Assembly (NCBI GenBank): GCA_001899315.1
Contig: MOYA01000001.1
Location: 2,558,529 to 2,622,528, forward strand
Source: Candidatus Obscuribacter phosphatis
Lineage (GTDB): Bacteria > Cyanobacteriota > Vampirovibrionia > Obscuribacterales > Obscuribacteraceae
Direction: 5' to 3'
DNA: 64,000 nucleotides
Part shown: one piece after another, positions 12,656-45,679 of the stretch
Numbering within the stretch: the first letter of the stretch is position 1
How the letters are laid out: each line of letters begins with the position of its first letter
Program-made: the position numbers and the translations under genes
Notes under the pieces: model-generated
The model's database searches: none
The model's input: only the letters and a program-made list of their open reading frames with translations
Told to the model about the DNA's origin: nothing

Positions 12656-12671
12656 TGGAAATGACGACGGC

Positions 12672-25110: not shown

Positions 25111-25114
25111 AAAC

Positions 25115-27223
25115 GTGAAAGCAAATGATTCCGGCATCGTACAAACCAATGCCCAAGACTTTCCGGTCCTCGCAGTAAACGTGCTCGACAGACTTGGCTA
25201 TCAGGTTTCAAGAGCGAGCAAGCAGCTAGACCAAATACTTGCAGTCGAGCGCCTCGATGAACAAATCGGACGCGACTGGCGGCGGCATGAGTACCGAGTA
25301 GTGGTGCGCTGGAGGAGCACCTCTGAAGGTGACATGCTAGTAACAATAGAAATCGATGAAAAGAAGGGAGCAGGAACACAGAGCGATTGTCTGAAACGAT
25401 GCGACCAGATCCTACTGGAAATGCAGAACGACGCTGGCCGAGTAGTGGAGGCAAAGCGCAGGAGAGAGAAGAGCACCATTTATGGCGCTGCCAGGTGGGG
25501 CACCATCGATGACTTGAGGACAGCTGGCTATATCCAGCCAAAAGCTGATCCCAAAAGACTAATCATCGGAAGAACGAGCGATAACAAATATATTCAAGTG
25601 CCAGAACTCTGGACCCATGCGCACGCACTAGTGTGCGGCAGAACTGGGGTTGGCAAATCGCGCGGTTTCTTCATCCCACAGCTCATCGAGCGCCTTGGCA
25701 CCAGCATGGTTGTTACCGAAGCGACTCCGGGGTACGAAGCAGGCGAACTCTACAAACTGACTTCCGGCTGGCGCAAACTTGCAGGACACAAAATCTACTG
25801 CTTCAACGCCTCGGACATGACTTCGCACAGAATCAATCCGATTGACCGAATAAGACGAGCGCCGGAAGAGCTAAAAGCACAGCTAGCAGAAAAGTTAGCC
25901 GACCTGGTGATTCTGAACGGAGAGCCAAGCGAAGCCAGACACGAGCAGACTTGGATCCGCTCAGAAAAGCTTTTGCTTGTGCCGCTCATATTGCATGCAG
26001 CCGCTAGCGCTCCTGAATACGGACACTTCGGAGCTCTGCGATGGCTGTTACTTAAGGGACCGGACCGCCTAGCCCGGGTTCTAGCGACTAGCCCATCTGA
26101 AGTCGCACAGATGGAATTCGAAGGTTGGCTGCGCCTGAGCGGCGAAACTGACTTTCGATACGGAGTCTTCTCCGGACTCATCACAAAACTGAATCCGTGG
26201 ATGACCGATCAAATGGTGGCACTGACTGAAACCACCGATATCGAGCTCGATGATATGAAAAATGAACTATTTACGTTTTACCTGGCGGTACCCAGCCGAA
26301 GCCGAGACAGCAAGTTAATCGGGTCACTCATGGTCAACTTTCTCCTCGATCACATCCTGGAGACGCGAGAGCAAATGAAATATCCAGTGACGATGCTTCT
26401 AGATGAATTCACCAACTTCGGCAAAATTTCGGGCATCGGCGACACTTTGTCTATCATCCGCAAGAACAAGGTCGGGCTGGTTCTCGGCTTCCAAAACCAC
26501 TTCCAGCTAGAGCAAGTCTACAGCCGAAAGGAGGCGCAAATAATCATCGATATGCCTGCAACACAGGTGTACTTCAAGCAGAAAACCTTTACCGAGGCGC
26601 GAGAACTCAGTGAAGCAATCGGACGCACCACTATCGAGGAGGCGACAGTAAGCGACAACGGCAGGGTGCAAGAAATGATTCAGGGGCGGGCACTGATAAC
26701 GCCGGATGAGCTAATCGGACTGAAAAACGAAGTCATCGTCTTCGCACCGGACACCAGCCCGCTAAAACTTCCTTTCACCTCGCCGACTGCTTACGAACAA
26801 GCGCTTGCATACGACCCGCCCGAAAGACCCAGGCATGCTGTGAGCGAGTTCATTCGCAGACGCGGGCGCACAGCGAGCGAGCCTACCAGTACGGCAGAAG
26901 AAGAGCCTTTCGAGAGAAGAGATACCTGGAAGTCTAAGAAATCGAAGAAGCACCAAGCCAGCACCAGGTACCCAGGCGAACCGCCCCGCGCCTCTGCCGA
27001 AGACAACGCCATCAATGCTGGTTCGCGAGCATCGCAAAACGATGATCGCTCCATTCAACCGAACTCTGAACACGGCAACAACAAAAACACTTCCGAAAGG
27101 CGAGGTGACTACCGAAGAGACCAGAACAATAAAGGCACCACAGGTAATCCAGAGCAACATTCCGACAACTGTCGAACCCATGGTCAAAGCGCAGACATCG
27201 CTCCGCCTGACTATGGCGACTAA
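25115..27223 (+). CDS. VirD4/TraG-like coupling ATPase without N-terminal membrane helices
   Basis: The 702-aa protein couples relaxase-bound DNA to a secretion channel. Walker A is CGRTGVGKSRGFF (about 173-185). The NPIDR strand, Walker B TMLLDEFTNFGKISGIG and the downstream GLVLGFQNHFQLEQVYS and MPATQVYFKQKT motifs are characteristic of type IV coupling proteins. Unlike classical VirD4 there are no transmembrane helices. The first ~130 residues form a separate alpha/beta domain (EYRVVVRWRS, MLVTIEIDEKKG). The last ~120 residues are low-complexity. No other type IV secretion genes are present, so a helper system would be required. Confidence 0.9.
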   Translation: MKANDSGIVQTNAQDFPVLAVNVLDRLGYQVSRASKQLDQILAVERLDEQIGRDWRRHEYRVVVRWRSTSEGDMLVTIEIDEKKGAGTQSDCLKRCDQILLEMQNDAGRVVEAKRRREKSTIYGAARWGTIDDLRTAGYIQPKADPKRLIIGRTSDNKYIQVPELWTHAHALVCGRTGVGKSRGFFIPQLIERLGTSMVVTEATPGYEAGELYKLTSGWRKLAGHKIYCFNASDMTSHRINPIDRIRRAPEELKAQLAEKLADLVILNGEPSEARHEQTWIRSEKLLLVPLILHAAASAPEYGHFGALRWLLLKGPDRLARVLATSPSEVAQMEFEGWLRLSGETDFRYGVFSGLITKLNPWMTDQMVALTETTDIELDDMKNELFTFYLAVPSRSRDSKLIGSLMVNFLLDHILETREQMKYPVTMLLDEFTNFGKISGIGDTLSIIRKNKVGLVLGFQNHFQLEQVYSRKEAQIIIDMPATQVYFKQKTFTEARELSEAIGRTTIEEATVSDNGRVQEMIQGRALITPDELIGLKNEVIVFAPDTSPLKLPFTSPTAYEQALAYDPPERPRHAVSEFIRRRGRTASEPTSTAEEEPFERRDTWKSKKSKKHQASTRYPGEPPRASAEDNAINAGSRASQNDDRSIQPNSEHGNNKNTSERRGDYRRDQNNKGTTGNPEQHSDNCRTHGQSADIAPPDYGD

Positions 27224-29380: not shown

Positions 29381-30448
29381 ATGAAAGTCTCAACTGCTAA
29401 CCCACATACTCAAACGAGCTCTTTACCGAAGATAGTGAGCTTGTTTTGTGGTGCCGGCGGACTTGATCTCGGATTTGTTGAGGAAGGATTTCAGATTCCA
29501 TTAGCTGTTGACATATCTGCAGCAGCCATAGAGACTCACTTGGATAATTTTCCATCCTCTGCAGCCATTGCAGCCGACCTAAATGCGCTCGGTCCTACAG
29601 GAGTACTAGAACAAGTAAGAAAATACATTCCAAAACAGTCAAGCATTGGCGTTATTGGTGGCCCCCCGTGTCAAGGCTTCTCGCGCGCAAACACTCGTGC
29701 AACAGCTGACGATCCAAGAAACAAGCTCCCGAAACTGTATTTGAAAATCATAAAAGCACTGCAAAGTGAGTATTCTGTTGAATTTGTTGTTCTCGAGAAC
29801 GTTCTCGGTATTAGGGACTGTAAACACGCTAAAACTTTCTTCTCCGTAAAGGATGGGCTTAAGCGGCTAGGATTTCGTGTCGATGACAACGAACTGTGCG
29901 CCCTAGATTTTGGGGTTCCGCAAATGCGCAGACGAGTTGTTCTGATAGGAATGCGTAAAGATCGAGATTATCCGACCGTTGTCGTTCGCAGACAAAAAGG
30001 CAAACGCACGGTGCGAGAGGCTATTTACGGTCTCTGTGCACCTGCATTCTTCGCTCCAAAGCTTGCGAAGGATGATATACCTGAACATCCAAACCATTGG
30101 ACGATGAAGCCAAAGTCAGCAAGATTTAGCAATCCTGATGCGATGACTAAAAACACACGAAGCTTCAAGCGCCTCACGTGGGACGAACCAAGTCCAACTA
30201 TTGCGTTTGGCAACCGGGAGATCCATGTTCATCCGAACGGACATCGGCGATTAAGTATCTATGAGGCAATGCTTATTCAGGGATTTCCCGAGTACTTCCA
30301 ACTCAACGGAAATTTGTCACAGCAGGTTGAGCAAATTTCGAATGCTGTTCCACCGCCTTTAGCTCGCGGCATTGCCTCTGGAATTCGTCTCTCAATAGTA
30401 GCGCATACTGAGATCAAAATTGAGTCAGCCGTTTCCGAGCCCCTGTGA
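29381..30448 (+). CDS. DNA cytosine-C5 methyltransferase, DruM-like
   Basis: The 355-aa enzyme has the ordered C5-MTase motifs: motif I VSLFCGAGGLDLGF (about 19-32), motif IV GGPPCQGFSRAN with catalytic Cys97, motif VI VVLENVLG (about 140), motif VIII region QMRRRVVLIGM, and motif X NAVPPPLARGIA near the C terminus. Its gene converges with a nuclease-helicase operon that includes a DruE-like giant helicase. Type II Druantia systems are known to carry a cytosine methylase (DruM), so this enzyme may mark self DNA for that system. A solitary methylase is the alternative. Confidence 0.9.
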   Translation: MKVSTANPHTQTSSLPKIVSLFCGAGGLDLGFVEEGFQIPLAVDISAAAIETHLDNFPSSAAIAADLNALGPTGVLEQVRKYIPKQSSIGVIGGPPCQGFSRANTRATADDPRNKLPKLYLKIIKALQSEYSVEFVVLENVLGIRDCKHAKTFFSVKDGLKRLGFRVDDNELCALDFGVPQMRRRVVLIGMRKDRDYPTVVVRRQKGKRTVREAIYGLCAPAFFAPKLAKDDIPEHPNHWTMKPKSARFSNPDAMTKNTRSFKRLTWDEPSPTIAFGNREIHVHPNGHRRLSIYEAMLIQGFPEYFQLNGNLSQQVEQISNAVPPPLARGIASGIRLSIVAHTEIKIESAVSEPL

Positions 30449-30470
30449 TTTCTCGGCAATTTGTGAATAA

Positions 30471-30507
30471 CGACAACTAGAATTGCGTTCCTCAATACTA
30501 GTTGTCG
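30471..30507. terminator. Convergent hairpin between methylase and nuclease genes
   Basis: CGACAACTAG (30471-30480) and CTAGTTGTCG (30498-30507) form a perfect 10-bp stem around 17 bases. It overlaps the stop codon of the leftward gene and follows the stop of the rightward one by 22 bases. T tracts are poor, so terminator function is only likely by position. Confidence 0.5.
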
Positions 30508-31586
30508 AATCGCCACAAGTCTACTTCCGGTATTTGGTCCAAACGCCAAATTACCGTTCTAAGAGAGCCAGATAGCGCATTCCCCGATGAAGTTTTCTTC
30601 AAGCCGCTGATGCGCACCGCCATGCCAGCTTCAAGTGGTTCTGCCGAGCTTAGTTGCGTCCGACCAAGTCTAACGGTATAGTCATCTGTTGCTACCGTGC
30701 CGCTGCCTGAGATTGATAGTGTGAAATCGCTCGTACTCCTAATCGGAAATGGTTTTCTCGTGACCGTCCCCTCAATGCTTTGAACTTCTAAACTATCGGA
30801 CCAACTCTCATTTACGTTCTTCCAAAAAGCCGGACAAATAATCTGGTAACTGCAACGAGCGCATTCAGTGATTGATGGATTGGCTTTCACAGCTCCATTA
30901 CCAATAGCATTATTGTAATCGTTCAATCTTTCAACAGCAGCTGCAGCTTCGGCATCACATTCCTCAGGTTCAATGTCAATGACTACCGATTGTCCGGACA
31001 CGGGCAGCAGAACAGCCTTCTTGACCCAATAACCCTTCACCGCGTGCACCATCGCTGCATAAAGTTTCAGCTGGCGAGAGTAGGATTCCTTGGCTATGGC
31101 GCTTTGTTCATCAGTGATTACGCCTGTCTTGTAATCGACCAGTTGTTCTGAATCAAAATAATCCGGTCGCCCCTTCAGCTTATTGTCATAACATCTAAGC
31201 TCTAACTCCCTCGAACCTGACGAGTTGCTAGTTCCACGACTGGTGCAGGTAGGCTCGTATTTGCGAACGAAATAACGTAATCCTGAATATAGCAGGTGAT
31301 ATCCAGGCCATCGTTCAGCATCCGCGAATCTCTGGTTCAGCGGGTGTTGCTTTGCTCGTTCGACCTGATACCTGATCCTTGTTGACCAGGCTAATTCAAC
31401 ATCAATAGGCGCTTTAGAAGCATCATAAATTATCTCGTGAATAATGGCTCCCATCCAGCTTTTAGGATGTGCAAGAACAAATTCATTGGTCTCTCTAACT
31501 CTGCTGAATCCTGCCTTTAATTGGCATGCTCGCAGTAGCTCATTTGTAGATGGGCTAGACGCCTCTATTGATGGAAGCGTTAGCAT
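30498..31586 (-). CDS. RecB-type PD-(D/E)XK nuclease with cysteine cluster
   Basis: About 362 aa. The catalytic motifs are LKGRPDYFDSEQLVDYKTG (RPD, then D-Y-K, around residues 145-163), as in RecB/Cas4-type nucleases, followed by YSRQLKLYAAMVHAVKG (motif QxxxY-like helix). A cysteine cluster, CARCSYQIICPAFW, near residue 245 resembles the C-terminal Fe-S site of Cas4/AddB-type nucleases. The start at 31586 overlaps the helicase stop (TAATG) and has GCGGAG upstream; a longer reading starts at 31625. It is the last gene of the four-gene leftward operon. Confidence 0.8.
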   Translation of the reverse strand: MLTLPSIEASSPSTNELLRACQLKAGFSRVRETNEFVLAHPKSWMGAIIHEIIYDASKAPIDVELAWSTRIRYQVERAKQHPLNQRFADAERWPGYHLLYSGLRYFVRKYEPTCTSRGTSNSSGSRELELRCYDNKLKGRPDYFDSEQLVDYKTGVITDEQSAIAKESYSRQLKLYAAMVHAVKGYWVKKAVLLPVSGQSVVIDIEPEECDAEAAAAVERLNDYNNAIGNGAVKANPSITECARCSYQIICPAFWKNVNESWSDSLEVQSIEGTVTRKPFPIRSTSDFTLSISGSGTVATDDYTVRLGRTQLSSAEPLEAGMAVRISGLKKTSSGNALSGSLRTVIWRLDQIPEVDLWRFDN

Positions 31587-34500
31587 TAAAATGGTCTCCG
31601 CAGTAACTCGAAAATTGAGCGACACTTAATTGACAATTCCTTGTCTCTGGCTTCTACAAAAGCTTCAGATAAGGCAGCGCCTATGTAGTCTGGGTGCGTT
31701 TGATACAGGGGATGAACAATCAGCTCGACTTTAGAGTCGCGCACCCCTCCCGGAATGCCTGCGAATTTAGAGAATTTCCAACCAGGCAGAGCACTTAGAT
31801 ACGTCTCAACTACATCATCAGCAAAATCCCAGTAATCAACGCCAAAACCTATTTCAGCCGTAGGGGCAAGCGCCAGTCTGACTAAATCTAATGCCAATCG
31901 CCAATCTAGAAGATTGTGATAAGCCATATTTCCGTAATCCCGCAGGCAATCGTAGCAGGAGGTTTTACATTCGCTAGCGTGCTCACTTGCCTTCAACGGA
32001 CTGATGAATTTTCCATGCCCTTCGTCCAGTACAAACTTCAGCAGTTCGTGCATGTAGTTGCCGGAACCTAAAACAGAACAGTAGCCGGCTCCGTTTTCCA
32101 AATTATCCGAAAGAAATACCTCGCCTTTGATTTCGCCGTTACTCACTCTCATTCCGCGAAGTCCCACTTTTAGCTCTCTCTCATCGATGTCTAGCAAGTC
32201 AGCGGCAGCACTGCGCATCAGGAATCCAAGCGAATACAGAGCGGCTTTACCTTCAACCGAAAGTGGTGACAGATTCAGTCCTACAGGAATTTCATGAAGA
32301 GAAAATAGCAAAAGATCCGTCGGCTTGATTGATGCAAGGGCGCGGCGATCCGGGTTACCGGTGAATCGTGCTTGAACTCCAATTTGTCTGAGCGCAGTGC
32401 GTGTCGCCCAAGTGTTACTGTTGGCTCCGTCCACGCGCTCGAAATTGAAATAATTGCCATCATTGTCATTTATGACACATACAGTCTCTTTGCCAGACCA
32501 TATGTCAAAATTCGCGACTGTGCGCAACGGTTGAACGTTTATACCTGTCTTCGTTCGTGATGCCCGAGCGGCCCATTCAAAAACGCCATCAAAATCTCGG
32601 GTACCTTGCCCAAACCATGTGCAAAAGCCCTTTGGCTCTGAAATCGGAACAATTTCGTACGGATGCTGACTGTGCCCGTCAGAGTCACAAACCGGACATC
32701 GCTCCGCCGGATCATCAGAAAGATCTACGGAGCTGCAAGATTTACAAATTCCAACGTCTATGGGTTGTCCTAGCGGATCAGGTTCCTGGACAACGATATT
32801 GCCGACGGGTCTGAAGTCGACAACACCAACTGATGTGTGAATAAGTCCATCTTTGACGGTCTCAGACCCAGGAGCAAACTGACTTATTGCGACGTCCAGA
32901 TCTCGATCAACCACCTCGTCGGGAGGCCAAGGGCGAACGGATTGCGGTCGTCTATGAAACAGATATCTCACCCTCGTAGGTAGACCGAACATTGGTAGGA
33001 TACCGCGATTGGCTAACCGATCGCTAAGCGAGGTCTGTCCCATACGTCGATCCTTCGCTATCGAAGTAACATGACGAATAAGGTCATGGAAAACATAGCC
33101 AATGAGAGAATCTCTCTTCTCCTGCAGGGTAGGATCCGTCTGAGTTAGCAGTATATCTACTATTTCTTCTATGTCTGACCCGTGATTCGCAATCCACCGC
33201 TCAATCACGTCAGCAACCGTACATTTAGCCGATGCCGCGCGCACGCCAGGAGGTGCCAGTGACAGCCAATCAGCTGCATCGCCAAACTCGCCATGGACGT
33301 TGTCTCCGCCCTCCCCCTGGAAGAGACCAGATTCACTAAATGAACGCCTAAGAACTTCTTTGCACAGCATTCGTTTGAGAATTTCTTCCCTCCGCACATC
33401 GACGTATGGCTGCGGTGGTTTTTCGCATGTTATGCGCTCTGGGCGCAAAAAATAATGATCGTCATGACTGCGTCCGCGACACAATGTCAAAGCAACCGAA
33501 AGGCTTGACTTGCGTCGTCCAGCCCGACCTACTCTTTGCTGATAATTGAAACGCATCGGAGGCATGTTTGCCATCATCACCGCGAGCAGCGAACCAATAT
33601 CGACTCCAGCCTCCATTGTTGTTGTGACACTAAGGAGATCAACGGTGTCAAGCAGCTGATTCTCAACGACCGGCAAGCAAATATTTTGGAACAATCGCTG
33701 CCGTTTCCTGGCATCGGAACTATTAGTTTGTCCTGTGAGTTCTTCACAATTCAATCTAAATGCTGGACCAGATGCCCTTGCCAAATACGCATAGTAATCC
33801 GCGGCTTCACCAGAAATTTCCGTTTTTGGTTTGTATGATAGGTTTCCCTGACAGTCGGTACAAACCCCGCCTGCCTCGTGTAAATGCTTTCTGCGGCAAT
33901 CCTCACACTCGAATACGCCTTCACTAGCTGTGGATACATAAAGTTGCTGACTTTGCAGAACGTTTTGTAATAAAGCGCCACTGTTAGTCAGGTGTGTAAT
34001 GACCGCGGACCGAAATACAGATGGAGGTTGGCGCTTATTCTTACTCGCAACCGCAAGAACATATCTTTCTACGTAGGGTGGAGTATTTACTCTGCTACTC
34101 GCCCCACGAGTATCAATTAGTCTTCGTTCGCCGAGCAAACGAATCACACCGTCTGCTGTCTGCCTAACAAGCACATCATCGCACTGATCCCCGGCACATG
34201 TGGCATAAGCTATGCCGAGTGACTCTAGAGAGCGCCGTCCCGATGCAAATATTATCGACATTAATTCATCGGCACTTGTCGCCTCAATTCTTTGAAGGTG
34301 CCGCCGTTGCGCTGAATCTAAATCTGCGTCCGACTTTACAGACGCCCCGGAGCTTGACCAGTTGTATAGGTCTTTCCACGAGCGCCTACGAGTATCAGGG
34401 TCTGACCACATCACTTCTTGAGCGAATCCGGCGGGATTGATACCCAAATCCAAAAGTTTCTTGGCCGCGGTATTGGATAGACGCACGACCGCGATGGTTC

Positions 34501-37090
34501 CAGAGACGGCTCGCTGAATTATGAGTTCCGCCTCTGCCGCATAGGTGCTACCGCTTGGTGTTTTCGAGTTCGCCATCGATGGTGTTTCTGCAAGCGCCAA
34601 GACCATTGCATCATGCTGATTGCTTAATTCGAATGCTTCTGCGGCAGTTGTTTCAGCCGAAGTTAGCTTATGCCCCTTTAGACGCTTGTGAAATGCAATA
34701 GCTCCATTCGCCTCGCTTTCAAGAGATTCGCATATCAGCTGACGCAACACATCTCGATAGTGTGAGAATCGCATGCCAGCAGATAATTTTGCCGCATCCT
34801 GACGGCTGTCCGAAAAAACCACTACCTTCTTCTCGTTTCCTGATCCGGCTGGCGCTATCTCCCGCAAGAGCCCATCAGTCAGGAGCTGAGCGACCTTCTG
34901 AAAGCCTGTTCGCAGCGTTCGAATCGGAGAACCAATGTCTCTTCGATGCCAGTCCGCATCGCATCTTGGACATTTTGATGGATATGCCGTATTAGATTCG
35001 TCAGCTAGATCTGGGCGAGGTTCGCTATGCATATCCCTAATGTAATACAGATAGCCATCTGTTCCAGCCAAAGCAACTCTCGCCTCAGCAGGAATGAATG
35101 TTGCTTCTCTCCACTCGCGACTGACACCATTTAGATTCCAACTTGCATCTTGCGGCACTAATGTTGTAGGCCAGTAAACACAATAAGACAAATAATTGCG
35201 GTCAAGGGATGCGAGTTCCGGGGAGGATTCAAGGTCTGGATGATCTGGACTGAGAATCCACTCCTCTGGATTATCAGGATCTTCTCTTCTGTATCCGCCG
35301 AGGAAGGTTTCGCCGCACGGCTCGCAATAGAGAAGCTCTAGTACTCTAGAGCCGCAAGAACATAATGGAGTGGGCACAAAATGAAGTTTGCCGATACGAC
35401 TTCGATCTACCTTTCTGTCTAACGCTGAACAATTCGGGTTCGTGCAAGCCCAGAGTCCCTGGAGATTCCGAAAGAACATGTGTACTCGGATAGGACATAA
35501 TGCTCCGGCCCGCTCATCATGCGCATTCCCGAGGCAAACCAAAAGCGACTCAACCCAGGACTCTTGAATTTGAACTGATTCTTCCGGAAATAGAGATTTA
35601 CCCAATTCCTTTAGTGTCAAAGGCATGATGTCATTGCCTTGTCCATCTATAGAACACGCGCTCCGCACGGCATCAGCGGCACCAATTGCCTTTAGCAAAT
35701 CGAACAGTGATTGCTGCTGAGTCGCATATGCTGGGAAGGTACTACCAACACGTTTAGCCAATCTGTTGATAGCCTCATCAACATCACCCGACGGAGAGGA
35801 TAAGGTCTTCGAAAGATCATGCAACTCGCTACCGAACTGCGATATTGCTGATACCTTGCTGCAGTCAATCGGAACCTTCGAGCCCGTTAGCACGGTGAAC
35901 CGATCAGCAGACCTTCCAAAGAATCCTTCTAGGTATTCTCTTCCTTTTGTGTCGTCCTCAAGCGAAGCGCTTGAAGCCACAATCCGCAGCTTGTCGGAAT
36001 TAAGTGACAGACCGAGGCGCGAGAATAGCAGCCTAAGTAGGTAAGCGACCTCAGTGCCAGGGGTCCCTCTGTAGGAGTGCAGCTCATCAACAACCAAATA
36101 AAAGACATTCTCTCTGGATTCGGAAAGCCAGTTTTTTGTCGTCTCGAAAATACTCCGCTCAAAGTCTCGCATTAACATGATATTCAGCATTGAGTAGTTT
36201 GTGATTAGAATGTCCGGAGGCTTCTCTTGCATATCCCAACGGGACCACATCTCGGCTCCATCCAGTCGCTGAAAGAATCGGGAAGCGTCGGTACCGGCAA
36301 CGCGAGACGCATCTCTGTCTATGCTCTGCAGCTCCTCGCGCAGCTTGCTCCTATTTGAGCCTGTAATCGCACCCGAGATTGGAGTTCGTCCGGTGTATCG
36401 ACCAAAGTAAAATGGATTCCCGTTGTTTCGGTTCTGGTACCAACTCCTGGCTTCTGCGCTATCAAGCGCATCTCTCAATCGCGCTACTTGATCCTCAACT
36501 AGAGCGTTGAGAGGATACAGTATGAGCGCTCTTACGCCGGCAGATCTAGTTTCATGGCTTCGCTGGCTTATGCGTGGAGCGAAAGATCTTCTACCGCCTC
36601 TAAGACTTGAATGCCTCTCACTCCACCAGTCCCATGCTGGACTTTTTGCACTCGGCGCTGACCAACTCTGAGACTCCTTAACTAACGACGACACTATGGG
36701 CAGAAAAAATGATTCAGTCTTTCCTGAGCCTGTTCCAGTTGTAACGATGACATCCTTACTTCGCTTTATGCAATTAACGAATGCTTCCGTCTGGTGCTCG
36801 TACATAAGGCGTTCGGCAGGAAAAAGTCCCGCGGTTACGAAGCCTATAAGCCTATCTATTTGTTGGGAACTCCAACCATCCAACTCTCGTCTTGCCATCT
36901 GCTCAAACGTCTCATGCGAAACATATGCTGGCACCGGCTCGATTATTGGGTCCCTGTATAAACGTTTATCGGAGTCTAGTAAGACTCGACGCTCGGACTT
37001 CAGATCCTCGTACCGCAATTCAAACGGACTATCTAGATATCGGAGGTAAACATCTCTTAGCGAATTGAAAATTGCGTTTGGGTACGTCAC
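31586..37090 (-). CDS. Giant DEAD/DEAH helicase with DUF1998, DruE-like
   Basis: This 1834-aa protein is the hallmark of the locus. Walker A TTGTGSGKT lies at about 117-125. LVVDELHSYRGTPG (DExH box) follows at about 335, then VVVFSDSRQDAAKLSAGMRF. In motor 2, TTTMEAGVDIGSLLAVMMAN and QQRVGRAGRRKSS (motif VI) are near residue 1200. Several CxxC pairs punctuate the middle (CEPCGETF, CEDCRRKH, CTDCQGN). The C-terminal DUF1998-like region has SECKTSCYDCLRDYGNMAYH. Its size, helicase order and DUF1998 end match DruE of Druantia defence systems. GTGA overlap with the upstream gene shows coupling. A GTG start codon at 37090 is used. Confidence 0.85.
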   Translation of the reverse strand: MTYPNAIFNSLRDVYLRYLDSPFELRYEDLKSERRVLLDSDKRLYRDPIIEPVPAYVSHETFEQMARRELDGWSSQQIDRLIGFVTAGLFPAERLMYEHQTEAFVNCIKRSKDVIVTTGTGSGKTESFFLPIVSSLVKESQSWSAPSAKSPAWDWWSERHSSLRGGRRSFAPRISQRSHETRSAGVRALILYPLNALVEDQVARLRDALDSAEARSWYQNRNNGNPFYFGRYTGRTPISGAITGSNRSKLREELQSIDRDASRVAGTDASRFFQRLDGAEMWSRWDMQEKPPDILITNYSMLNIMLMRDFERSIFETTKNWLSESRENVFYLVVDELHSYRGTPGTEVAYLLRLLFSRLGLSLNSDKLRIVASSASLEDDTKGREYLEGFFGRSADRFTVLTGSKVPIDCSKVSAISQFGSELHDLSKTLSSPSGDVDEAINRLAKRVGSTFPAYATQQQSLFDLLKAIGAADAVRSACSIDGQGNDIMPLTLKELGKSLFPEESVQIQESWVESLLVCLGNAHDERAGALCPIRVHMFFRNLQGLWACTNPNCSALDRKVDRSRIGKLHFVPTPLCSCGSRVLELLYCEPCGETFLGGYRREDPDNPEEWILSPDHPDLESSPELASLDRNYLSYCVYWPTTLVPQDASWNLNGVSREWREATFIPAEARVALAGTDGYLYYIRDMHSEPRPDLADESNTAYPSKCPRCDADWHRRDIGSPIRTLRTGFQKVAQLLTDGLLREIAPAGSGNEKKVVVFSDSRQDAAKLSAGMRFSHYRDVLRQLICESLESEANGAIAFHKRLKGHKLTSAETTAAEAFELSNQHDAMVLALAETPSMANSKTPSGSTYAAEAELIIQRAVSGTIAVVRLSNTAAKKLLDLGINPAGFAQEVMWSDPDTRRRSWKDLYNWSSSGASVKSDADLDSAQRRHLQRIEATSADELMSIIFASGRRSLESLGIAYATCAGDQCDDVLVRQTADGVIRLLGERRLIDTRGASSRVNTPPYVERYVLAVASKNKRQPPSVFRSAVITHLTNSGALLQNVLQSQQLYVSTASEGVFECEDCRRKHLHEAGGVCTDCQGNLSYKPKTEISGEAADYYAYLARASGPAFRLNCEELTGQTNSSDARKRQRLFQNICLPVVENQLLDTVDLLSVTTTMEAGVDIGSLLAVMMANMPPMRFNYQQRVGRAGRRKSSLSVALTLCRGRSHDDHYFLRPERITCEKPPQPYVDVRREEILKRMLCKEVLRRSFSESGLFQGEGGDNVHGEFGDAADWLSLAPPGVRAASAKCTVADVIERWIANHGSDIEEIVDILLTQTDPTLQEKRDSLIGYVFHDLIRHVTSIAKDRRMGQTSLSDRLANRGILPMFGLPTRVRYLFHRRPQSVRPWPPDEVVDRDLDVAISQFAPGSETVKDGLIHTSVGVVDFRPVGNIVVQEPDPLGQPIDVGICKSCSSVDLSDDPAERCPVCDSDGHSQHPYEIVPISEPKGFCTWFGQGTRDFDGVFEWAARASRTKTGINVQPLRTVANFDIWSGKETVCVINDNDGNYFNFERVDGANSNTWATRTALRQIGVQARFTGNPDRRALASIKPTDLLLFSLHEIPVGLNLSPLSVEGKAALYSLGFLMRSAAADLLDIDERELKVGLRGMRVSNGEIKGEVFLSDNLENGAGYCSVLGSGNYMHELLKFVLDEGHGKFISPLKASEHASECKTSCYDCLRDYGNMAYHNLLDWRLALDLVRLALAPTAEIGFGVDYWDFADDVVETYLSALPGWKFSKFAGIPGGVRDSKVELIVHPLYQTHPDYIGAALSEAFVEARDKELSIKCRSIFELLRRPF

Positions 37091-38037
37091 GAAATTACTA
37101 GTTCCTGCTCGAGAATAATTGACAACATTTTCGCACCTTCAATGGGAATGTGGTAATACTCCAACAAACCCGCACCCTCTTGATATCCGGGTGGTTCTCC
37201 CGAATACAAAAGCAACGCACGCTCCACAAGCAAGGGCGGGCGATAAATTCTTGGGACCGCCAAAATGTTGTTATCCTTGCGGTAGTCAAGAACGGATACT
37301 GAATTTGCAGATAGAATCTGATACTTTGCTGTGGCTTGATCTTCCATCAGAACGGCTTGTCTATTTCTGACTGCATAGAGCAGAGTTTCGTACAAACCTG
37401 AAAATCGATACAGTTGAGCACCAGTAAGATCCGCATAGATGGACTCGCTAGGCTCCCATCTATGACTAACATAGTTAAGGCGCTCGATTTTCCAATCCTG
37501 GCCAAAGGGAATTGCAGCTCCCCTCTCCCTAAACGTTAACCTCGATAATCGGGGGAGTGCTCTAAGTAACGACTCTGGTGCGACCCTTTGAATTCGAAAC
37601 CCTAAGTCTTTGCATTCGCTCTCAATCACATCGCTATCGATACCACGAATAAGAATTCGGTCTGGACAGTTCTTAAATGCAGCGAGTTCAATATTAGCTC
37701 CAAACGAGCAATCAAGAAGCTGGTAAATTAGAGCGTCTGCTCTAGCTCCTGTTAAGATGGCTCTTGATTCTCCATTATGCTCATGCACAGCTATCACTGG
37801 CGGTGTGACACGCCATCCTCGCTCGCAACCAGACTCAAAGAATTCAACATGAGATAGACGCTGCAAGTTAGAACGCAGTGCACGATAGACAGATGAATCA
37901 TCACCTGAGTCTTCCGTGGACTCTGTTGGCCTGTTACCCCGACAATTTAAATCTGAGGCATTCACAAATTGCCGAAACTGATACCAAGAACCGCGCTTCA
38001 TTGCGGATAGTGCAAGTAGTAGTTCATTTCCGTCCAT
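37087..38037 (-). CDS. Druantia-operon protein of unknown fold
   Basis: The 316-aa product is soluble with no motif I can name. It has two likely parts: an N-terminal region with acidic stretches, and a C-terminal region LYETLLYAVRNRQAVLMED then IYRPPLLVERALLLYSGEPP. Its stop overlaps the helicase start (GTGA) and its start overlaps the upstream gene by 14 bases, so it is tightly co-expressed. By position it could be a DruF/DruG-type partner of type II Druantia; I cannot assign which. Confidence 0.6.
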   Translation of the reverse strand: MDGNELLLALSAMKRGSWYQFRQFVNASDLNCRGNRPTESTEDSGDDSSVYRALRSNLQRLSHVEFFESGCERGWRVTPPVIAVHEHNGESRAILTGARADALIYQLLDCSFGANIELAAFKNCPDRILIRGIDSDVIESECKDLGFRIQRVAPESLLRALPRLSRLTFRERGAAIPFGQDWKIERLNYVSHRWEPSESIYADLTGAQLYRFSGLYETLLYAVRNRQAVLMEDQATAKYQILSANSVSVLDYRKDNNILAVPRIYRPPLLVERALLLYSGEPPGYQEGAGLLEYYHIPIEGAKMLSIILEQELVIS

Positions 38038-40006
38038 TTTTTAAACTCTTCCATAGTCGTCGAGCGAGTTTCTTATAGGAAAGCCACAACTCTTCCCGCC
38101 CCCCTTCCCCGCTAACAATCAGACCCTTGCGTGATGCATCCATTATTGCCTGGATCCATCGAAGCACCATCTTGCTCCGAACCAAATTGCCTTCCACTTG
38201 TACCGATTTTGGCTCTAGCAGCTCGATTGCTGATACTCTCTTGTCGCAATGGATTGGATCATCCGGAATAGACCACACTGGCTCGAATGAAATGTTCAAA
38301 GGCTTGCTTTGATTTCCGCTATCTCGCTCAATGAATATGTCACCAGGCCGTCTTCCTAAAAGTAATCTATTGGTTGGAAAAATTCCTGTAATTGCATGCA
38401 ACTCCCCCAACTCATCGACTGTCCATAGCGAGCTACCGCAGATTACATACTCCGAATTACCGTTTTGAACTCTGTGGCAAATCCAGGGCTTCCAATTGCA
38501 GTCCGGTTCGACAATCTCGTAACGTTTGCTAATTCGCCCGAATCTTACAATATGTTTTCCGGGGCTGTATGCAAAAGCTGATGAAAAACTTCCTGAACTA
38601 TCGGTTATTACCGCAGTCTCGTCTATAGTCACACCGTTTTCGAGCGGAGGATGAATTCGGATTTCCGGGGGGTAACCATGAAGCCACACTCCATTACCGA
38701 GTCTCACTCCAGACGAAAATGAAATCTCAACTATCGGGGCGACGTTAAACACCTCAAGCTCGCCTGTGAACTCTTCCCCTGGAACTACAGTTGGTACTAC
38801 GCCTTTATAGCAAACGAACCCCTCTGGTATTCCATCGTTACTGGAATAAATGTCCTTCGGCTTAGCGCCTATTATCTGCAAAGCAGCTTCGATTTCCGCA
38901 GATGCCTCGTCACAACAAAGAACGCTGTAAGTTTGGCCGATCTCTAATCGTCCGAAGTTTTGAATGAATCCGCTGATCTGTTCTCCGGACTTTAGAACTA
39001 TGATTTTTCGACCACGTAATCTCCATCTATATTCAATGTCCTCGTCCTCGGAAAAGCCAGTCCCTCCAAATTTCAACAAATTCCCTAGGTAGTCCGGACG
39101 GATATCGGAATACCAACAGGGGTGGATTCTCCTAATGTTATATGCCATTCCATCGCTAAGAGAGATGGATAATTCCCTGGGCATTCTTTCATATCTTCTG
39201 GCAACAAGAGTAACTGAGCTACGCTGTCCTGGAAGGAACCGAAGACGAGGCACCAGCCTTAACGCCCGCTCAAGCGATCTTTGGACTAGGTTCACTCTAG
39301 TGTTTTCAAAACTGCTATCTTCATGATTGTTGCCGGTGAATTTTTTCCAACTCACTGCACGGCAGGAACGGCACCAGCTCTGTGGCACCCGCTTTCCATT
39401 CATGGTTCTTCGCCCGAAGTCACGGTCTAGAGGCTTCACCTCTCCGCAGTGAGGACACTGTCGGTAGAGATCAGACATCACTGCTGCTGCTAGATATTGT
39501 TCGCGAGGAATTCCAACATGAATATGATTGCCAGCGAAACTGTACTTAAATAAGCCTAAATCACCGTTCCTATCCACTCTAGACCAGCGTTCAAGATCAT
39601 CCCAAAGTTCGATCATTCTATCGAACCTTGGATAAGGCCTATTTACTTCAGCGGGTTCTCCCAGGACCTTACGGAGATGGTAGTAGTATGCAAGAGGTCC
39701 ACGCTCAGGAGACTCCTCCTCCACCGCGATGACGAACAGACTCAGATAGCCTATCGACGGTGGAAACTCAAGCCGTCGTTCTCTCCATCCGTTCCATGCT
39801 TTTAGGGCCTTATCACAAACCGTCATACTGCCTGAAGCCCAGGAAGGACCAGATTTAAGCGCCAGAATGAAGTCCTTAAAATCGCCCTCTTCTCCACCCA
39901 GCTGCTCAATCAGCTGTCTCGATACGGCTAGATATACGGGCATACCTGATCTTTGTTTATTGAAAAAATGTTTTGCGATTCGTTCATTCCATTGCAGGTA
40001 ATGCAT
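38024..40006 (-). CDS. Zinc-finger-containing first gene of the Druantia-like operon
   Basis: The 660-aa protein opens the leftward operon. Residues about 1-150 are helical. A zinc ribbon-like motif, CPHCGEVKPLDRDFGRR then WCRSCRAVSWKKF, lies at about 185-220. The C-terminal half is beta-rich with repeated immunoglobulin-like segments (for example YSPGKHIVRFGRISKRYEIV). No catalytic motif is seen. By position and context it could be a DruF/DruG counterpart. The distribution of CxxC pairs suggests DNA contact. Confidence 0.6.
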   Translation of the reverse strand: MHYLQWNERIAKHFFNKQRSGMPVYLAVSRQLIEQLGGEEGDFKDFILALKSGPSWASGSMTVCDKALKAWNGWRERRLEFPPSIGYLSLFVIAVEEESPERGPLAYYYHLRKVLGEPAEVNRPYPRFDRMIELWDDLERWSRVDRNGDLGLFKYSFAGNHIHVGIPREQYLAAAVMSDLYRQCPHCGEVKPLDRDFGRRTMNGKRVPQSWCRSCRAVSWKKFTGNNHEDSSFENTRVNLVQRSLERALRLVPRLRFLPGQRSSVTLVARRYERMPRELSISLSDGMAYNIRRIHPCWYSDIRPDYLGNLLKFGGTGFSEDEDIEYRWRLRGRKIIVLKSGEQISGFIQNFGRLEIGQTYSVLCCDEASAEIEAALQIIGAKPKDIYSSNDGIPEGFVCYKGVVPTVVPGEEFTGELEVFNVAPIVEISFSSGVRLGNGVWLHGYPPEIRIHPPLENGVTIDETAVITDSSGSFSSAFAYSPGKHIVRFGRISKRYEIVEPDCNWKPWICHRVQNGNSEYVICGSSLWTVDELGELHAITGIFPTNRLLLGRRPGDIFIERDSGNQSKPLNISFEPVWSIPDDPIHCDKRVSAIELLEPKSVQVEGNLVRSKMVLRWIQAIMDASRKGLIVSGEGGREELWLSYKKLARRLWKSLKNGRK

Positions 40007-40280: not shown

Positions 40281-41462
40281 CTATCGTCCTCCTGGACGTG
40301 GCTCTGTTCCTCGCTCCAGTATTTTGAGGTATGCGGCGTACACAAAAACTCGGCCTCTCAGTCTGCCAGTAACCTCCCTTACAATTCCAATTCGCTCCAG
40401 ATTTTGAAGAGCGGCGGTAACAGTTGGCGTAGTCAGTCCGAGCGCTTTCACCATTTCCGGTATCACTGCCAGTGGCTTTCTCTCAAGATATCTATGCACC
40501 TGAAGGGCTGATCCGGCGCTCCGTCCGACATCAGCGATCCTCTCGCGGTCAGTCTGAATGAGAGCAAGAATTTCACGGGCAGCGCCAGTGGCTTGTATCG
40601 CTATATCGCTGACACCAACAAGAAAGAACTTGAGCCAACTTTCCCAATCTCCGGTCTCGCGAACATGCTGAAGATGTGCATAGTATTCCTTGCGGTGCGT
40701 CTTAAAATACAAGCTGAGATACAGAATTGGTTCGGAGAGAACACCCTCGGTGCAAAGCATTAGGGTGATAAGAAGACGACCGAGCCGGCCATTACCGTCC
40801 AAGAACGGGTGAATGGTTTCAAACTGATGATGAACAAGCGCTGCTCTAATTAGTAGCGGCAGCTTGTCTTCTTTTTTGTGCAAGTACTTCTCCAAGTCAC
40901 TCATGCATTCAACAACGCGATCTGGCGGAGGCGGCACATAAATGGCATTGCCCGGTCTAGTTCCACCGACCCAATTTTGACTATGGCGAAATTCGCCTGG
41001 TGCTTTGGTGCCACCACGAGCACCGGTCATAAGCACCTCGTGAATCTCCCGTATCAATCTCATGGACATGGGGAAACCTTCTCTTAGCCGCTTCAGTCCA
41101 TGATTCATGGCGGCTACGTAATTTGAGACTTCTTGAACATCGTCCAATGGCACGCCAGGAGCCTCTTCGCTTTCATAGAGAAGCAGGTCTGACAGAGAGG
41201 ATTGCGTTCCCTCGATCTGAGACGACAATACCGCTTCCTTGCGTACGTACATGTAGAGAAACAGTTGCGTATCCGGAAGAACAGTAGCAAGACCGTCTAA
41301 GCGTCCGAGTGATTGGCTCGCCTTCTCGACCAGCCCCTGAAGGTCGTCGAGTTGAAGCCCTGGCGGCGGCAGCGGGCGTGGGACCAAAGCCCAGTAGGGT
41401 TCCTCGCTGTTTGCTGAACAGCGTACTCTTTCTCCCAGTCTAGCTTTCCGGTCAATTTCCAT
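40281..41462 (-). CDS. Fic-domain AMPylator with winged-helix C terminus
   Basis: The 393-aa protein transfers AMP (or a related group) to a target hydroxyl. The Fic motif HPFLDGNGRLGRLL is complete, with catalytic His and the phosphate-binding GNGR. The inhibitory helix motif (S/T)xxxE(G/N) is present as SSQIEG (E84), placing it in the self-inhibited class with the inhibitory helix N-terminal to the Fic core. A C-terminal winged-helix region (KPLAVIPEMVKALGLTTPTV and TAALQNLERIGIVREVTGRL) suggests DNA binding. Inverted repeats at 41466-41528 overlap its promoter, pointing to autoregulation. Confidence 0.92.
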   Translation of the reverse strand: MEIDRKARLGERVRCSANSEEPYWALVPRPLPPPGLQLDDLQGLVEKASQSLGRLDGLATVLPDTQLFLYMYVRKEAVLSSQIEGTQSSLSDLLLYESEEAPGVPLDDVQEVSNYVAAMNHGLKRLREGFPMSMRLIREIHEVLMTGARGGTKAPGEFRHSQNWVGGTRPGNAIYVPPPPDRVVECMSDLEKYLHKKEDKLPLLIRAALVHHQFETIHPFLDGNGRLGRLLITLMLCTEGVLSEPILYLSLYFKTHRKEYYAHLQHVRETGDWESWLKFFLVGVSDIAIQATGAAREILALIQTDRERIADVGRSAGSALQVHRYLERKPLAVIPEMVKALGLTTPTVTAALQNLERIGIVREVTGRLRGRVFVYAAYLKILERGTEPRPGGR

Positions 41463-43661: not shown

Positions 43662-44264
43662 ATGCACGCCCTCGCTACACCGACAAAACCTACTGGCGCG
43701 GCTCTTCTGTCTCGTCGGCTTCGAGCAGGCGGAGTATACCGGCGTGAAGATCTTGCTCCGGACTCTAATGCTGTTGACCGTCATTTGAAACAGCTACAAG
43801 AAACAGGCCGGCTCAAAAAGCTATCTCAAGGACTCTACTACGTGCCTCGACAGTCGGCCTATGGCGCGTTGCCGCCAGATGACAGAGAACTCGTTGCTGC
43901 ATTTCTGCGTGATGACAATTTCTTGCTGCTTTCACCGGCCAGCTACAACACACTTGAGCTAGGCGGCACGCAACTCTACAACCGTACCGTTGTCTACAAT
44001 CACAAGCGACACGGACGGTTTACTTTCGGAAACCGGACATTCGATTTTCGAATGAAGCCGCGATTTCCGCGCAGACTTTCCCATGAGTTCCTCATTGTTG
44101 ATTTACTCAACAATCTGGATGAACTTGCAGAAGAGCGCGAAGATCTCTTGCGTAATGCTCAGCTTAAAGCTCCGACATTGGACCGCCGCAAGCTAATGCA
44201 AGCAGCATCAAATTTCGGAACTGTAGCGACAAAGCAATTGGTCAAGAAGTGGCTTGATGTCTGA
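43662..44264 (+). CDS. AbiEi-type antitoxin/transcriptional regulator
   Basis: The 200-aa protein has the AbiEi layout: an N-terminal winged-helix (GAALLSRRLRAGGVYRREDL and HLKQLQETGRLKKLSQGLYY) and a C-terminal domain (LVAAFLRDDNFLLLSPASYN, FLIVDLLNNLDEL). In AbiE systems it represses its operon and counteracts the nucleotidyltransferase toxin. It overlaps the toxin gene by 8 bases. Confidence 0.85.
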   Translation: MHALATPTKPTGAALLSRRLRAGGVYRREDLAPDSNAVDRHLKQLQETGRLKKLSQGLYYVPRQSAYGALPPDDRELVAAFLRDDNFLLLSPASYNTLELGGTQLYNRTVVYNHKRHGRFTFGNRTFDFRMKPRFPRRLSHEFLIVDLLNNLDELAEEREDLLRNAQLKAPTLDRRKLMQAASNFGTVATKQLVKKWLDV

Positions 44265-45198
44265 ATACTTGCATAAGAGAGCAGATTTTGCAGCTCTGCT
44301 GAATCTCATTGCGAGCAGAGATGGCATCACGCCTACCTTGGTCGAAAAAGATTACTGGATCATGCACAGCCTTCACGGGCTCAAGCAACAAGGATTTCAA
44401 TTCGAATTGAAGGGCGGCACCTCACTGTCCAAAGGGTTTGGAATCATCAAACGGTTTTCAGAAGATATAGACATCCGCTTTGAACCTCCTGCGGAGATGG
44501 AGGTAAAAACTGGAAAGAATCACGATAAGGAGATTCATATTGAATCCCGCAGGAAATTTTACGACTGGCTCGCCGGTGAAATTGACATTGCGGATGTCAC
44601 AGCTTCACGTGCCACCGAATATGACGATGAGCGCCTGCGAAATGGTGGCATACGCCTCAGTTATGAAACCAAGACCGCAGAACTTAAGGGAGTAAAGCCA
44701 GGTATCCTACTTGAAGTCGGCTTCGATGACACCGCGCCAAACACCTCTGTGGACATTTCATCTTGGGCTTTGGAAACGGCTCGCACAAATAAGGTTGATG
44801 TCATCGATAACCGGGCGATTGCCGTTCTCTGCTACAACCCCGAATACACATTCGTTGAGAAATTGCAGACAATCTCTACCAAATTCCGTCAATTCCGATC
44901 TTCTGGCAAAATGCCCTCCAATTTTCTCCGACACTACAACGATGTTCATTCGTTGCTGGACGTTGAGGCTGTGCAGCGCTTCATCGGCACCGAACAATAT
45001 GAACTACGAAAGAAACAACGCTTTCCAAGCCAAGACGAATTGCGCATATCCAAGAATCCGGCATTCCTCTTCGAAAACCCTGAGGAATACAAGCAATTCG
45101 AGAGGGAGTATAAGGGAACTGAAGCTCTTTACTATGCTGGACAACCGTCCCTTGCTGACATTGCAGCAAAGATCAAACAACACATCGACAAGCTGTAG
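44257..45198 (+). CDS. AbiEii/AbiGii-type nucleotidyltransferase toxin
   Basis: The 313-aa product carries the nucleotidyltransferase signature KGGTSLSKGFGIIKRFSEDI then DIRF (GGTS followed by D-x-D) near residue 50, plus YTFVEKLQTISTKFR and HYNDVHSLLD typical of AbiEii proteins. Known members transfer nucleotides to tRNA or other acceptors and stop growth, which limits phage. ATG 44257 is chosen over TTG 44254. Confidence 0.93.
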   Translation: MSEYLHKRADFAALLNLIASRDGITPTLVEKDYWIMHSLHGLKQQGFQFELKGGTSLSKGFGIIKRFSEDIDIRFEPPAEMEVKTGKNHDKEIHIESRRKFYDWLAGEIDIADVTASRATEYDDERLRNGGIRLSYETKTAELKGVKPGILLEVGFDDTAPNTSVDISSWALETARTNKVDVIDNRAIAVLCYNPEYTFVEKLQTISTKFRQFRSSGKMPSNFLRHYNDVHSLLDVEAVQRFIGTEQYELRKKQRFPSQDELRISKNPAFLFENPEEYKQFEREYKGTEALYYAGQPSLADIAAKIKQHIDKL

Positions 45199-45229
45199 TG
45201 CGACAGCTAGACGCGAGGAATTGCAGCGA

Positions 45230-45508
45230 ATGACCTTGATTTATGCTCGCTTGTCCAACGTATGCACCGTGCACGCGACAGATTCATTACTCACTAGATT
45301 AACTCCCGAGGGACAGCGTGAGGCAATCCCGGAAAGGCGTCCCAAGATCATCGCCATACCCCGATTTCTGGGAGCAATGCCGTGGTGGGCAGCGACACAG
45401 CGGCCTATGATACGCGGCGGCTGGGATGCAATCGACTGGTTAATCGAACGTGCAGCCGAAGCGAAGAAACCGAGCTTTCTGCGGACAACCCCTCTTTGGC
45501 AACATTGA
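45230..45508 (+). CDS. Possible small protein between AbiE and Wadjet
   Basis: A 92-codon open frame (MTLIYARLSNVCTVHATDSL and on) in the 480-base gap. It has Trp- and Arg-rich segments (GAMPWWAATQRPMIRGGWDA) and no recognised domain. Its start has only a weak AGCGA-like site. It could be a gene remnant. Confidence 0.25.
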   Translation: MTLIYARLSNVCTVHATDSLLTRLTPEGQREAIPERRPKIIAIPRFLGAMPWWAATQRPMIRGGWDAIDWLIERAAEAKKPSFLRTTPLWQH

Positions 45509-45679
45509 TTGAGACAGATTCCGCTGCGCGCCGTCAGCGCCAAGGTTACCCATGTCTCGTTGTAGAATCACGCCATTAGAGACCGCTACAATATAAGTAA
45601 TAGTTTATAGAATCATCAAAAAACGCAGCTGCAGGACGAAAGAGGGGTTGCTAAGATATATTTCGAATATCGCCCCGGT

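What the first reader, a model, noticed from the sequence alone, without database searches (positions are those of the whole stretch)
29381..40006. Druantia type II-like locus with an added RecB-type nuclease
A C5 methyltransferase next to an 1834-aa helicase ending in DUF1998, with two unknown partners, fits the gene content published for type II Druantia (DruM, DruF, DruG, DruE). Here a 362-aa PD-(D/E)XK nuclease with a Cys cluster is co-translated with the helicase (TAATG overlap), and the methylase is on the opposite strand. The nuclease could be the missing effector of this poorly understood system.
Basis: partly seen in the sequence, partly recalled or inferred. Interest (0 to 1): 0.7.

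Follow-up and report, generated by a model that had tools for sequence, protein, structure and literature searches.

The report
Druantia type IV with DruK nuclease
This is a known kind of bacterial anti-phage system (Druantia type IV) that carries a DNA-cutting enzyme already listed in a defence-gene database as DruK; comparing about 100 related loci suggests that enzyme works as a unit with the system's helicase, which no held paper discusses and which could now be tested.

Summary
All five genes are real and placed as described. Three co-directional genes (druF, druL, druE) plus the nuclease form a tightly coupled operon, with a C5 methyltransferase convergent to it. By profile scores and gene content this is Druantia type IV (Payne 2021), not type II: DruE4 beats DruE2, DruL4 is present and DruG is absent.

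New here: (1) intact DruK directly follows druE in 24 of 79 scorable relatives (3 more have fragments) and co-evolves with DruE (Mantel r 0.83) about as tightly as DruL and DruF; the methyltransferase does so weakly (0.33). (2) DruK has four invariant cysteines, an intact PD-(D/E)XK site and a predicted SSB-like OB fold. (3) DruE's C-terminal domain shows no PD-(D/E)XK residues, so DruK is a plausible nuclease supplied in trans. (4) DruL equals the C-terminal part of long, fused DruF proteins. (5) In related loci the DruF N-domain is replaced by a membrane anchor.

Most likely DruE unwinds phage DNA and DruK degrades it; this is inferred, not shown. Two thirds of relatives lack DruK, so it is not a universal effector.

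The parts
29381..30448 (+). C5 cytosine DNA methyltransferase (DruM-like), motifs FCGAGG, PPCQGFS and ENV intact; convergent with the operon
   Evidence: Pfam DNA_methylase 1.3e-49; PADLOC best DruM2 PDLC00030 8.8e-92; closest relatives found here (46-48% identity) are also Druantia-linked: L040, L048; motifs
30498..31586 (-). druK: Cas4/AddB-like PD-(D/E)XK nuclease with 4-Cys (Fe-S type) cluster and C-terminal OB fold; ATG overlaps the druE stop (TAATG)
   Evidence: PADLOC DruK PDLC00060 9.3e-27; PDDEXK_1 1.9e-16; invariant C21, H50, E127, D142, C242, C245, C251; AlphaFold pLDDT 88.4; Foldseek AdnA, ACE1, Cas4, Dna2 and SSB
30816..31556 (-). druK nuclease domain (about residues 11-257)
   Evidence: Pfam PDDEXK_1 11-252; model elements
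30537..30791 (-). druK C-terminal OB fold (about residues 266-350)
   Evidence: strand order E269-281 E288-296 E302-307 H309-312 E323-331 E338-348; SSB matches with TM-score up to 0.61 normalised by target
31586..37090 (-). druE: YprA-family SF2 helicase, Walker A GTGSGKT (119), DELH (335), motif VI QRVGRAGR (1185)
   Evidence: PADLOC DruE4 PDLC00051 E=0, 1792 bits over 4-1833; motifs; closest solved relatives 9wae and the YprA/MrfA entry 6znp
31589..31918 (-). druE C-terminal domain (about residues 1725-1834) after the DUF1998-type cysteines; no PD-(D/E)XK residues, conserved HPLW/HPLY instead
   Evidence: alignment of 94 DruE; predicted inactivated Vsr domain in Druantia I/II (PMC12458937)
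37087..38037 (-). druL: likely winged-helix N-terminus; homologous to the C-terminal part of long DruF
   Evidence: PADLOC DruL4 PDLC00057 1.1e-16; DruF2 PDLC00023 positions 748-1006, 1.3e-11; fold order from the fused homologue L083
38024..40006 (-). druF: soluble form with intact N-terminal domain
   Evidence: PADLOC DruF4 PDLC00054 1e-61; full-length family profile match 1-662

Best explanation
This is a Druantia type IV operon, druF-druL-druE, followed by the accessory nuclease druK, with a linked C5 methyltransferase. Shown by sequence: identity of the genes, translational coupling, co-inheritance of DruK with DruE, an intact nuclease site and a complete cysteine quartet. Inferred: DruE (ATP-driven SF2 helicase) and DruK (Cas4/AddB/Dna2-like nuclease with a single-strand-binding OB fold) form a helicase-nuclease unit. 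DruE opens phage DNA and passes single strands to DruK, which degrades them. DruF plus DruL (two halves of what is one protein in other bacteria) act as recognition or loading factor, with DruL perhaps touching DNA through its winged helix. The methyltransferase probably marks host DNA. DruK supplies a nuclease activity that the C-terminal domain of DruE appears to have lost.
For: PADLOC, Pfam and NCBIfam scans. DruK start within -8 to +17 nt of the DruE stop in 24/24 loci. Mantel r vs DruE: DruK 0.83, DruL 0.89, DruF 0.88, methyltransferase 0.33; no permutation of 999 reached any of these, largest permuted value for DruK 0.39. Key residues: four Cys, H50, E127, D142 and (D/E)151 in 24/24, K153 in 23/24. 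In 386 genomes of the phylum only the own DruK matches strongly (1e-107); the next is 4e-21, and the four best others have no DruE nearby. AlphaFold/Foldseek: nuclease core like AdnA, ACE1, Cas4, Dna2, AddA; OB fold like SSB. DruE C-terminal domain without nuclease motif in all readable relatives, in line with PMC12458937. Fused DruF-DruL ORFs in 8 loci, confirmed with PADLOC DruF4+DruL4 on L108. Methyltransferase within -7/+5 kb in 18/22 DruK+ vs 20/46 DruK- loci (Fisher p 0.004).
Against: Two thirds of scorable relatives lack DruK, so the core can presumably act without it. DruK is seen decaying (fragments in L032, L060, L103), and one DruK (L054) has lost the catalytic Lys. The DruK-methyltransferase link is not significant once relatedness is allowed for (independent pairs 4.0 vs 0.2, median p 0.125). 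No interaction was predicted or measured; roles of DruF and DruL are guesses (no fold match below E 0.1). The type IV description says such systems lack DruM (PMC8565338), yet a methyltransferase is here.
Confidence: 0.62

Rival explanations
1. DruK is not the antiviral cutter but an accessory processing or repair enzyme (for example trimming ends made by DruE, or limiting self-damage); the core DruF-DruL-DruE blocks phage replication by helicase action alone.
For: Core without DruK in 52 of 79 loci; DruE C-terminal domain also lacks nuclease residues in those; decay of DruK in three loci.
Against: DruK co-evolves with DruE as tightly as the core genes and is strictly coupled in translation; the other fused or adjacent nucleases of YprA-family systems are regarded as effectors (PMC12458937, PMC13192584).
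Confidence: 0.25
2. Methyltransferase and DruK form a restriction-modification-like pair: DruK cuts DNA lacking the methylation mark, with DruE-DruF-DruL as translocation/recognition machinery.
For: Methyltransferase in 82% of DruK+ vs 43% of DruK- loci (Fisher p 0.004); closest methyltransferase relatives found are Druantia-linked.
Against: Methyltransferase co-evolves only weakly with DruE (r 0.33), changes position and strand, and the association is not significant after pairing for relatedness.
Confidence: 0.3
3. A Druantia type II locus with an extra nuclease.
For: DruM-like methyltransferase present; DruE2 scores 1634 bits.
Against: DruE4, DruF4 and DruL4 score best, no DruG in the locus, nuclease already a Dru family.
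Confidence: 0.05
4. DISARM, Dpd or an MrfA-type repair helicase locus.
For: Shared YprA-family helicase core; weak DrmA, DpdJ and MrfA matches.
Against: DruE4 1792 bits vs DpdJ 71 and DrmA 31 bits; DruF and DruL partners.
Confidence: 0.01

Closest known systems
Druantia type IV (Payne et al. 2021, PMC8565338; PADLOC-DB)
   Same: DruE4 + DruF4 + DruL4 gene set; no DruG
   Different: Has a linked DruM-like C5 methyltransferase, said to be lacking in type IV, and the accessory DruK nuclease, which is in PADLOC-DB but named in no held paper
Druantia type II (DruM, DruF, DruG, DruE)
   Same: DruE and DruF homologous; methyltransferase present
   Different: No DruG; DruL encoded apart, where some long DruF proteins carry it fused; DruE4/DruF4 score better
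DruK (PADLOC PDLC00058-60)
   Same: Whole nuclease family matches
   Different: Window protein is a diverged member (92 bits; relatives reach 8e-115)
AdnA/AddB, Dna2, Cas4, Argonaute-associated Cas4 (ACE1)
   Same: Fe-S-type PD-(D/E)XK nuclease core; helicase partnership in AdnAB/AddAB/Dna2
   Different: DruK is a separate small protein with its own C-terminal OB fold, coupled to a YprA-family SF2 helicase
Druantia type III DruE (helicase plus active PLD nuclease; PMC13192584)
   Same: YprA-family helicase with a nuclease activity in the system
   Different: In type III the nuclease is fused to DruE; here it is a separate subunit

Membership tests
Druantia type IV | DruE homologue (type IV-like) | tested here: met
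   PDLC00051 DruE4, E=0, 1792 bits, 4-1833; DruE2 1634
Druantia type IV | DruF homologue | tested here: met
   PDLC00054 DruF4 1e-61
Druantia type IV | DruL homologue | tested here: met
   PDLC00057 DruL4 1.1e-16; family alignment of 68
Druantia type IV | lacks DruG | tested here: met
   no DruG match in the five genes or the neighbours scanned
Druantia type IV | lacks DruM (as described in 2021) | tested here: not met
   DruM-like methyltransferase 50 bp from druK. It is only weakly co-inherited with DruE (r 0.33), so it may be a linked cassette, and a methyltransferase recurs near 38 of 68 scored loci of the family. This is a negative clause; the positive gene content is met, so the filing as type IV rests on DruE4+DruF4+DruL4 and carries this exception
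Druantia type IV | anti-phage activity | not testable with these tools
   no assay; in PMC8565338 the variants reported as cloned were Zorya III, Hachiman II and Lamassu II
Druantia type II | DruG present | tested here: not met
Druantia type II | DruM, DruF, DruE present | tested here: met
   but the type IV profiles score higher for DruE and DruF
DruK (PADLOC) | profile match, adjacent to DruE | tested here: met
   PDLC00060 9.3e-27; overlap with the druE stop
DISARM / Dpd / MrfA | helicase scores best with DrmA, DpdJ or MrfA | tested here: not met
   DrmA 31, DpdJ 71 bits vs 1792
Cas4-type Fe-S PD-(D/E)XK nuclease | one N-terminal plus three C-terminal Cys, D...(D/E)xK, Q | tested here: met
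   C21, C242, C245, C251, D142, D151-K153, Q172
Cas4-type Fe-S PD-(D/E)XK nuclease | bound iron-sulphur cluster and nuclease activity | not testable with these tools
   needs purified protein

The most novel reading that the evidence does not exclude
Druantia type IV exists as a nuclease-armed subfamily in which DruK replaces a nuclease domain lost from DruE, the methyltransferase gives self-protection, and DruF/DruL are the split halves of one recognition protein that in some lineages is anchored in the membrane: a helicase-nuclease defence complex resembling AddAB/Dna2 but assembled from separate parts.
Probability: 0.3. Interest if true: 0.62.

Novelty: new member of a known kind. Interest (0 to 1): 0.4.

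Why it matters
To my knowledge Druantia types I, II and IV have no established mechanism, and their DruE carries no intact nuclease motif, unlike type III. The data name a concrete nuclease subunit (DruK) that co-evolves with DruE, give its predicted catalytic residues, and show that DruL is part of long DruF. That makes the question 'what destroys the phage DNA in Druantia II/IV?' directly testable with one operon and one point mutant, and it simplifies the type II/type IV boundary.

Tried and rejected
Type II with an unnamed nuclease (rejected). DISARM/Dpd/MrfA (rejected). Idea that DruK occurs only where the DruE C-terminal Vsr-like domain is dead: untestable, because the domain lacks catalytic residues in both DruK+ and DruK- relatives. 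Chance neighbour: rejected by coupling and co-evolution. DruK as a stray AddB/Cas4: rejected, its profile separates it from other Fe-S nucleases in 386 genomes. DruK-methyltransferase dependence: suggestive only. DruF-DruL fold (L083, pLDDT 81.5): no significant PDB or viral match. Plasmid tblastn with DruK alone: no hit. No held paper mentions the PDB entries 9wae or 9wds, the closest solved DruE relative. First MAFFT/tree attempt timed out, redone with FastTree. Searches failed on search-term format.
Full report
Observation. Three genes, druF (38024-40006), druL (37087-38037) and druE (31586-37090), run on the minus strand with overlapping ends. The nuclease gene (30498-31586) starts with an ATG that overlaps the druE stop (TTTTAATG). 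The C5 methyltransferase (29381-30448) is on the plus strand and ends 50 bp from the nuclease stop. Pfam confirms methylase, PD-(D/E)XK and helicase domains. The Pfam DUF1998/MZB model itself does not match, although the conserved C-terminal cysteines are present and the protein aligns end to end with DruE profiles.

Identity. PADLOC-DB gives DruE4 (1792 bits; DruE2 1634), DruF4 (207; DruF2 188), DruL4 and DruK. Type IV was defined in 2021 as DruE+DruF+DruL without DruM and DruG (PMC8565338). The window meets the positive clauses and lacks DruG, but it has a DruM-like methyltransferase. DISARM, Dpd and MrfA scores are negligible beside this. The nuclease is PADLOC's DruK, and all 22 family members scanned match two DruK models. 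A full-text search found no paper that names DruK as a Druantia protein, so the family exists as a database model without a published account in the held library.

Census. A conserved-motif scan of 84,980 species genomes gave at least 558 relatives; the best 80 were kept, to which plasmid and viral loci were added. With family profiles built here, intact DruK follows DruE in 24 of 79 loci (the window included) where the downstream side can be scored; 3 more hold fragments and 52 lack it. The presence pattern needs 16 changes on the DruE tree. The best-80 sample is biased towards relatives of the query alignment, so 24/79 is not a population frequency.

Co-inheritance. Pairwise distances in the DruK tree follow those in the DruE tree (Mantel r 0.83, n=24; largest of 999 permutations 0.39), nearly as well as DruL (0.89) and DruF (0.88). 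The methyltransferase follows far less (0.33, n=43). DruK starts can be placed within -8 to +17 nt of the DruE stop in all 24 loci (the nearest possible start was chosen, so the figure is somewhat favourable). In 386 genomes of the same phylum the DruK profile finds the window protein at 1e-107 and nothing else better than 4e-21; the four best of those others have no DruE nearby. DruK therefore behaves as a dedicated DruE partner.

Nuclease anatomy. C21, H50, E127, D142, C242, C245 and C251 are invariant in 24 sequences, position 151 is D or E, and K153 is present in 23. The AlphaFold model (pLDDT 88.4) matches AdnA, Argonaute-associated Cas4, Cas4, Dna2 and AddA, and its C-terminal part matches SSB-type OB folds. 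The sequence profile independently hits the nuclease domains of AdnAB, Dna2 and Cas4 in the PDB. The cysteine pattern predicts an iron-sulphur cluster, which is not shown.

DruE. Helicase motifs are intact. The C-terminal domain after the last cysteine pair keeps an HPLW/HPLY motif but shows no PD-(D/E)XK residues in DruK+ or DruK- relatives, which agrees with the prediction of an inactivated Vsr domain in Druantia I/II (PMC12458937). In type III, DruE carries its own active PLD nuclease (PMC12458937, PMC13192584). A separate nuclease is therefore a sensible complement here, but loci without DruK show that it is not obligatory. Some of those have other nucleases immediately downstream (HNH in L041, an HNH plus ATPase pair in L072).

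DruF and DruL. DruL matches positions 748-1006 of a 1011-aa DruF2 model. Eight loci encode both parts as one ORF (L025, L026, L083, L086, L087, L101, L108, L115); on L108 PADLOC scores DruF4 at 3-663 (1e-159) and DruL4 at 694-1007 (2.5e-86). So the gene that defines type IV corresponds to the C-terminal part of long DruF. In the model of the fused L083 protein the start of the DruL part has the helix-strand order of a winged helix and the DruF middle is beta-rich, but no fold match is significant. In the lineage nearest to the window's DruE, 14 DruF proteins lack the N-terminal domain of about 200 residues and carry a strong N-terminal transmembrane segment instead (hydropathy scan); two of these barely match PADLOC DruF (L048, L073). 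The window's DruF is of the soluble form.

Methyltransferase. It is found within 7 kb upstream or 5 kb downstream of druE in 18 of 22 DruK+ and 20 of 46 DruK- loci (fragments counted as DruK+; Fisher p 0.004, the widest of three window sizes tried; p 0.07 and 0.04 for the narrower ones). Pairs of independent changes point the same way (4.0 vs 0.2) but are too few for significance. Self-protection is thus a hypothesis.

Mechanism. Best guess: recognition by DruF-DruL, unwinding by DruE, degradation of single strands by DruK, host marking by the methyltransferase. Identity of the system is near certain (about 0.95); the helicase-nuclease step is about 0.6; the roles of DruF, DruL and the methyltransferase are lower.

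Setting. The locus sits in a defence island with a relaxase and coupling protein, type I restriction-modification, PDC-S06, AbiE, Fic and Wadjet I.

Verdict. A new member of a known kind, with testable additions.

Noticed in passing
L033, L069, L034, L073, L039, L041, L057, L044, L049, L040, L047, L032, L092, L048 (druF genes): The DruF N-terminal domain (~200 aa) is missing and replaced by a strong N-terminal transmembrane helix plus linker in 14 loci of the lineage nearest the window's DruE; L031 is a weaker 15th case. PADLOC DruF models barely detect the two tested. A membrane-anchored Druantia variant?
   Followed up: partly
L025, L026, L083, L086, L087, L101, L108, L115: DruF and DruL encoded as one fused ORF, so the type IV marker DruL corresponds to a part of long DruF.
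   Followed up: yes
L032 15900-16262; L060 15399-16493; L103 15582-16629: DruK present only as fragments after an intact druE: apparent recent loss.
   Followed up: partly
L029 13409-14554: A DruK homologue directly follows the DruE of a locus with a gene annotated DruA (type I) in Meiothermus, so DruK may cross Druantia types.
   Followed up: no
window 9276-16070: Complete type I restriction-modification system (HsdM, HsdS, HsdR).
   Followed up: partly
window 16681-19278: 865-aa ATPase matching the PADLOC candidate defence family PDC-S06.
   Followed up: no
window 23557-27223: MobA/VirD2-type relaxase and VirD4/TraG-type coupling protein next to the Druantia locus: the island may be mobilisable.
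   Followed up: no
window 40281-41462: Fic-family protein matching PADLOC SoFic (7.9e-124), directly upstream of druF on the same strand.
   Followed up: no
window 43662-52486: AbiEi/AbiEii pair followed by a complete Wadjet type I operon JetABCD.
   Followed up: partly
L041 15480-16616; L072 15522-17917: Loci without DruK can have other nucleases in the same slot: an HNH protein (L041), an ATPase plus HNH pair (L072).
   Followed up: partly
PDB 9wae and 6 further entries: A solved 1970-aa helicase is the closest structural relative of this DruE by sequence (1281 bits with the family profile); no held paper describes it.
   Followed up: partly
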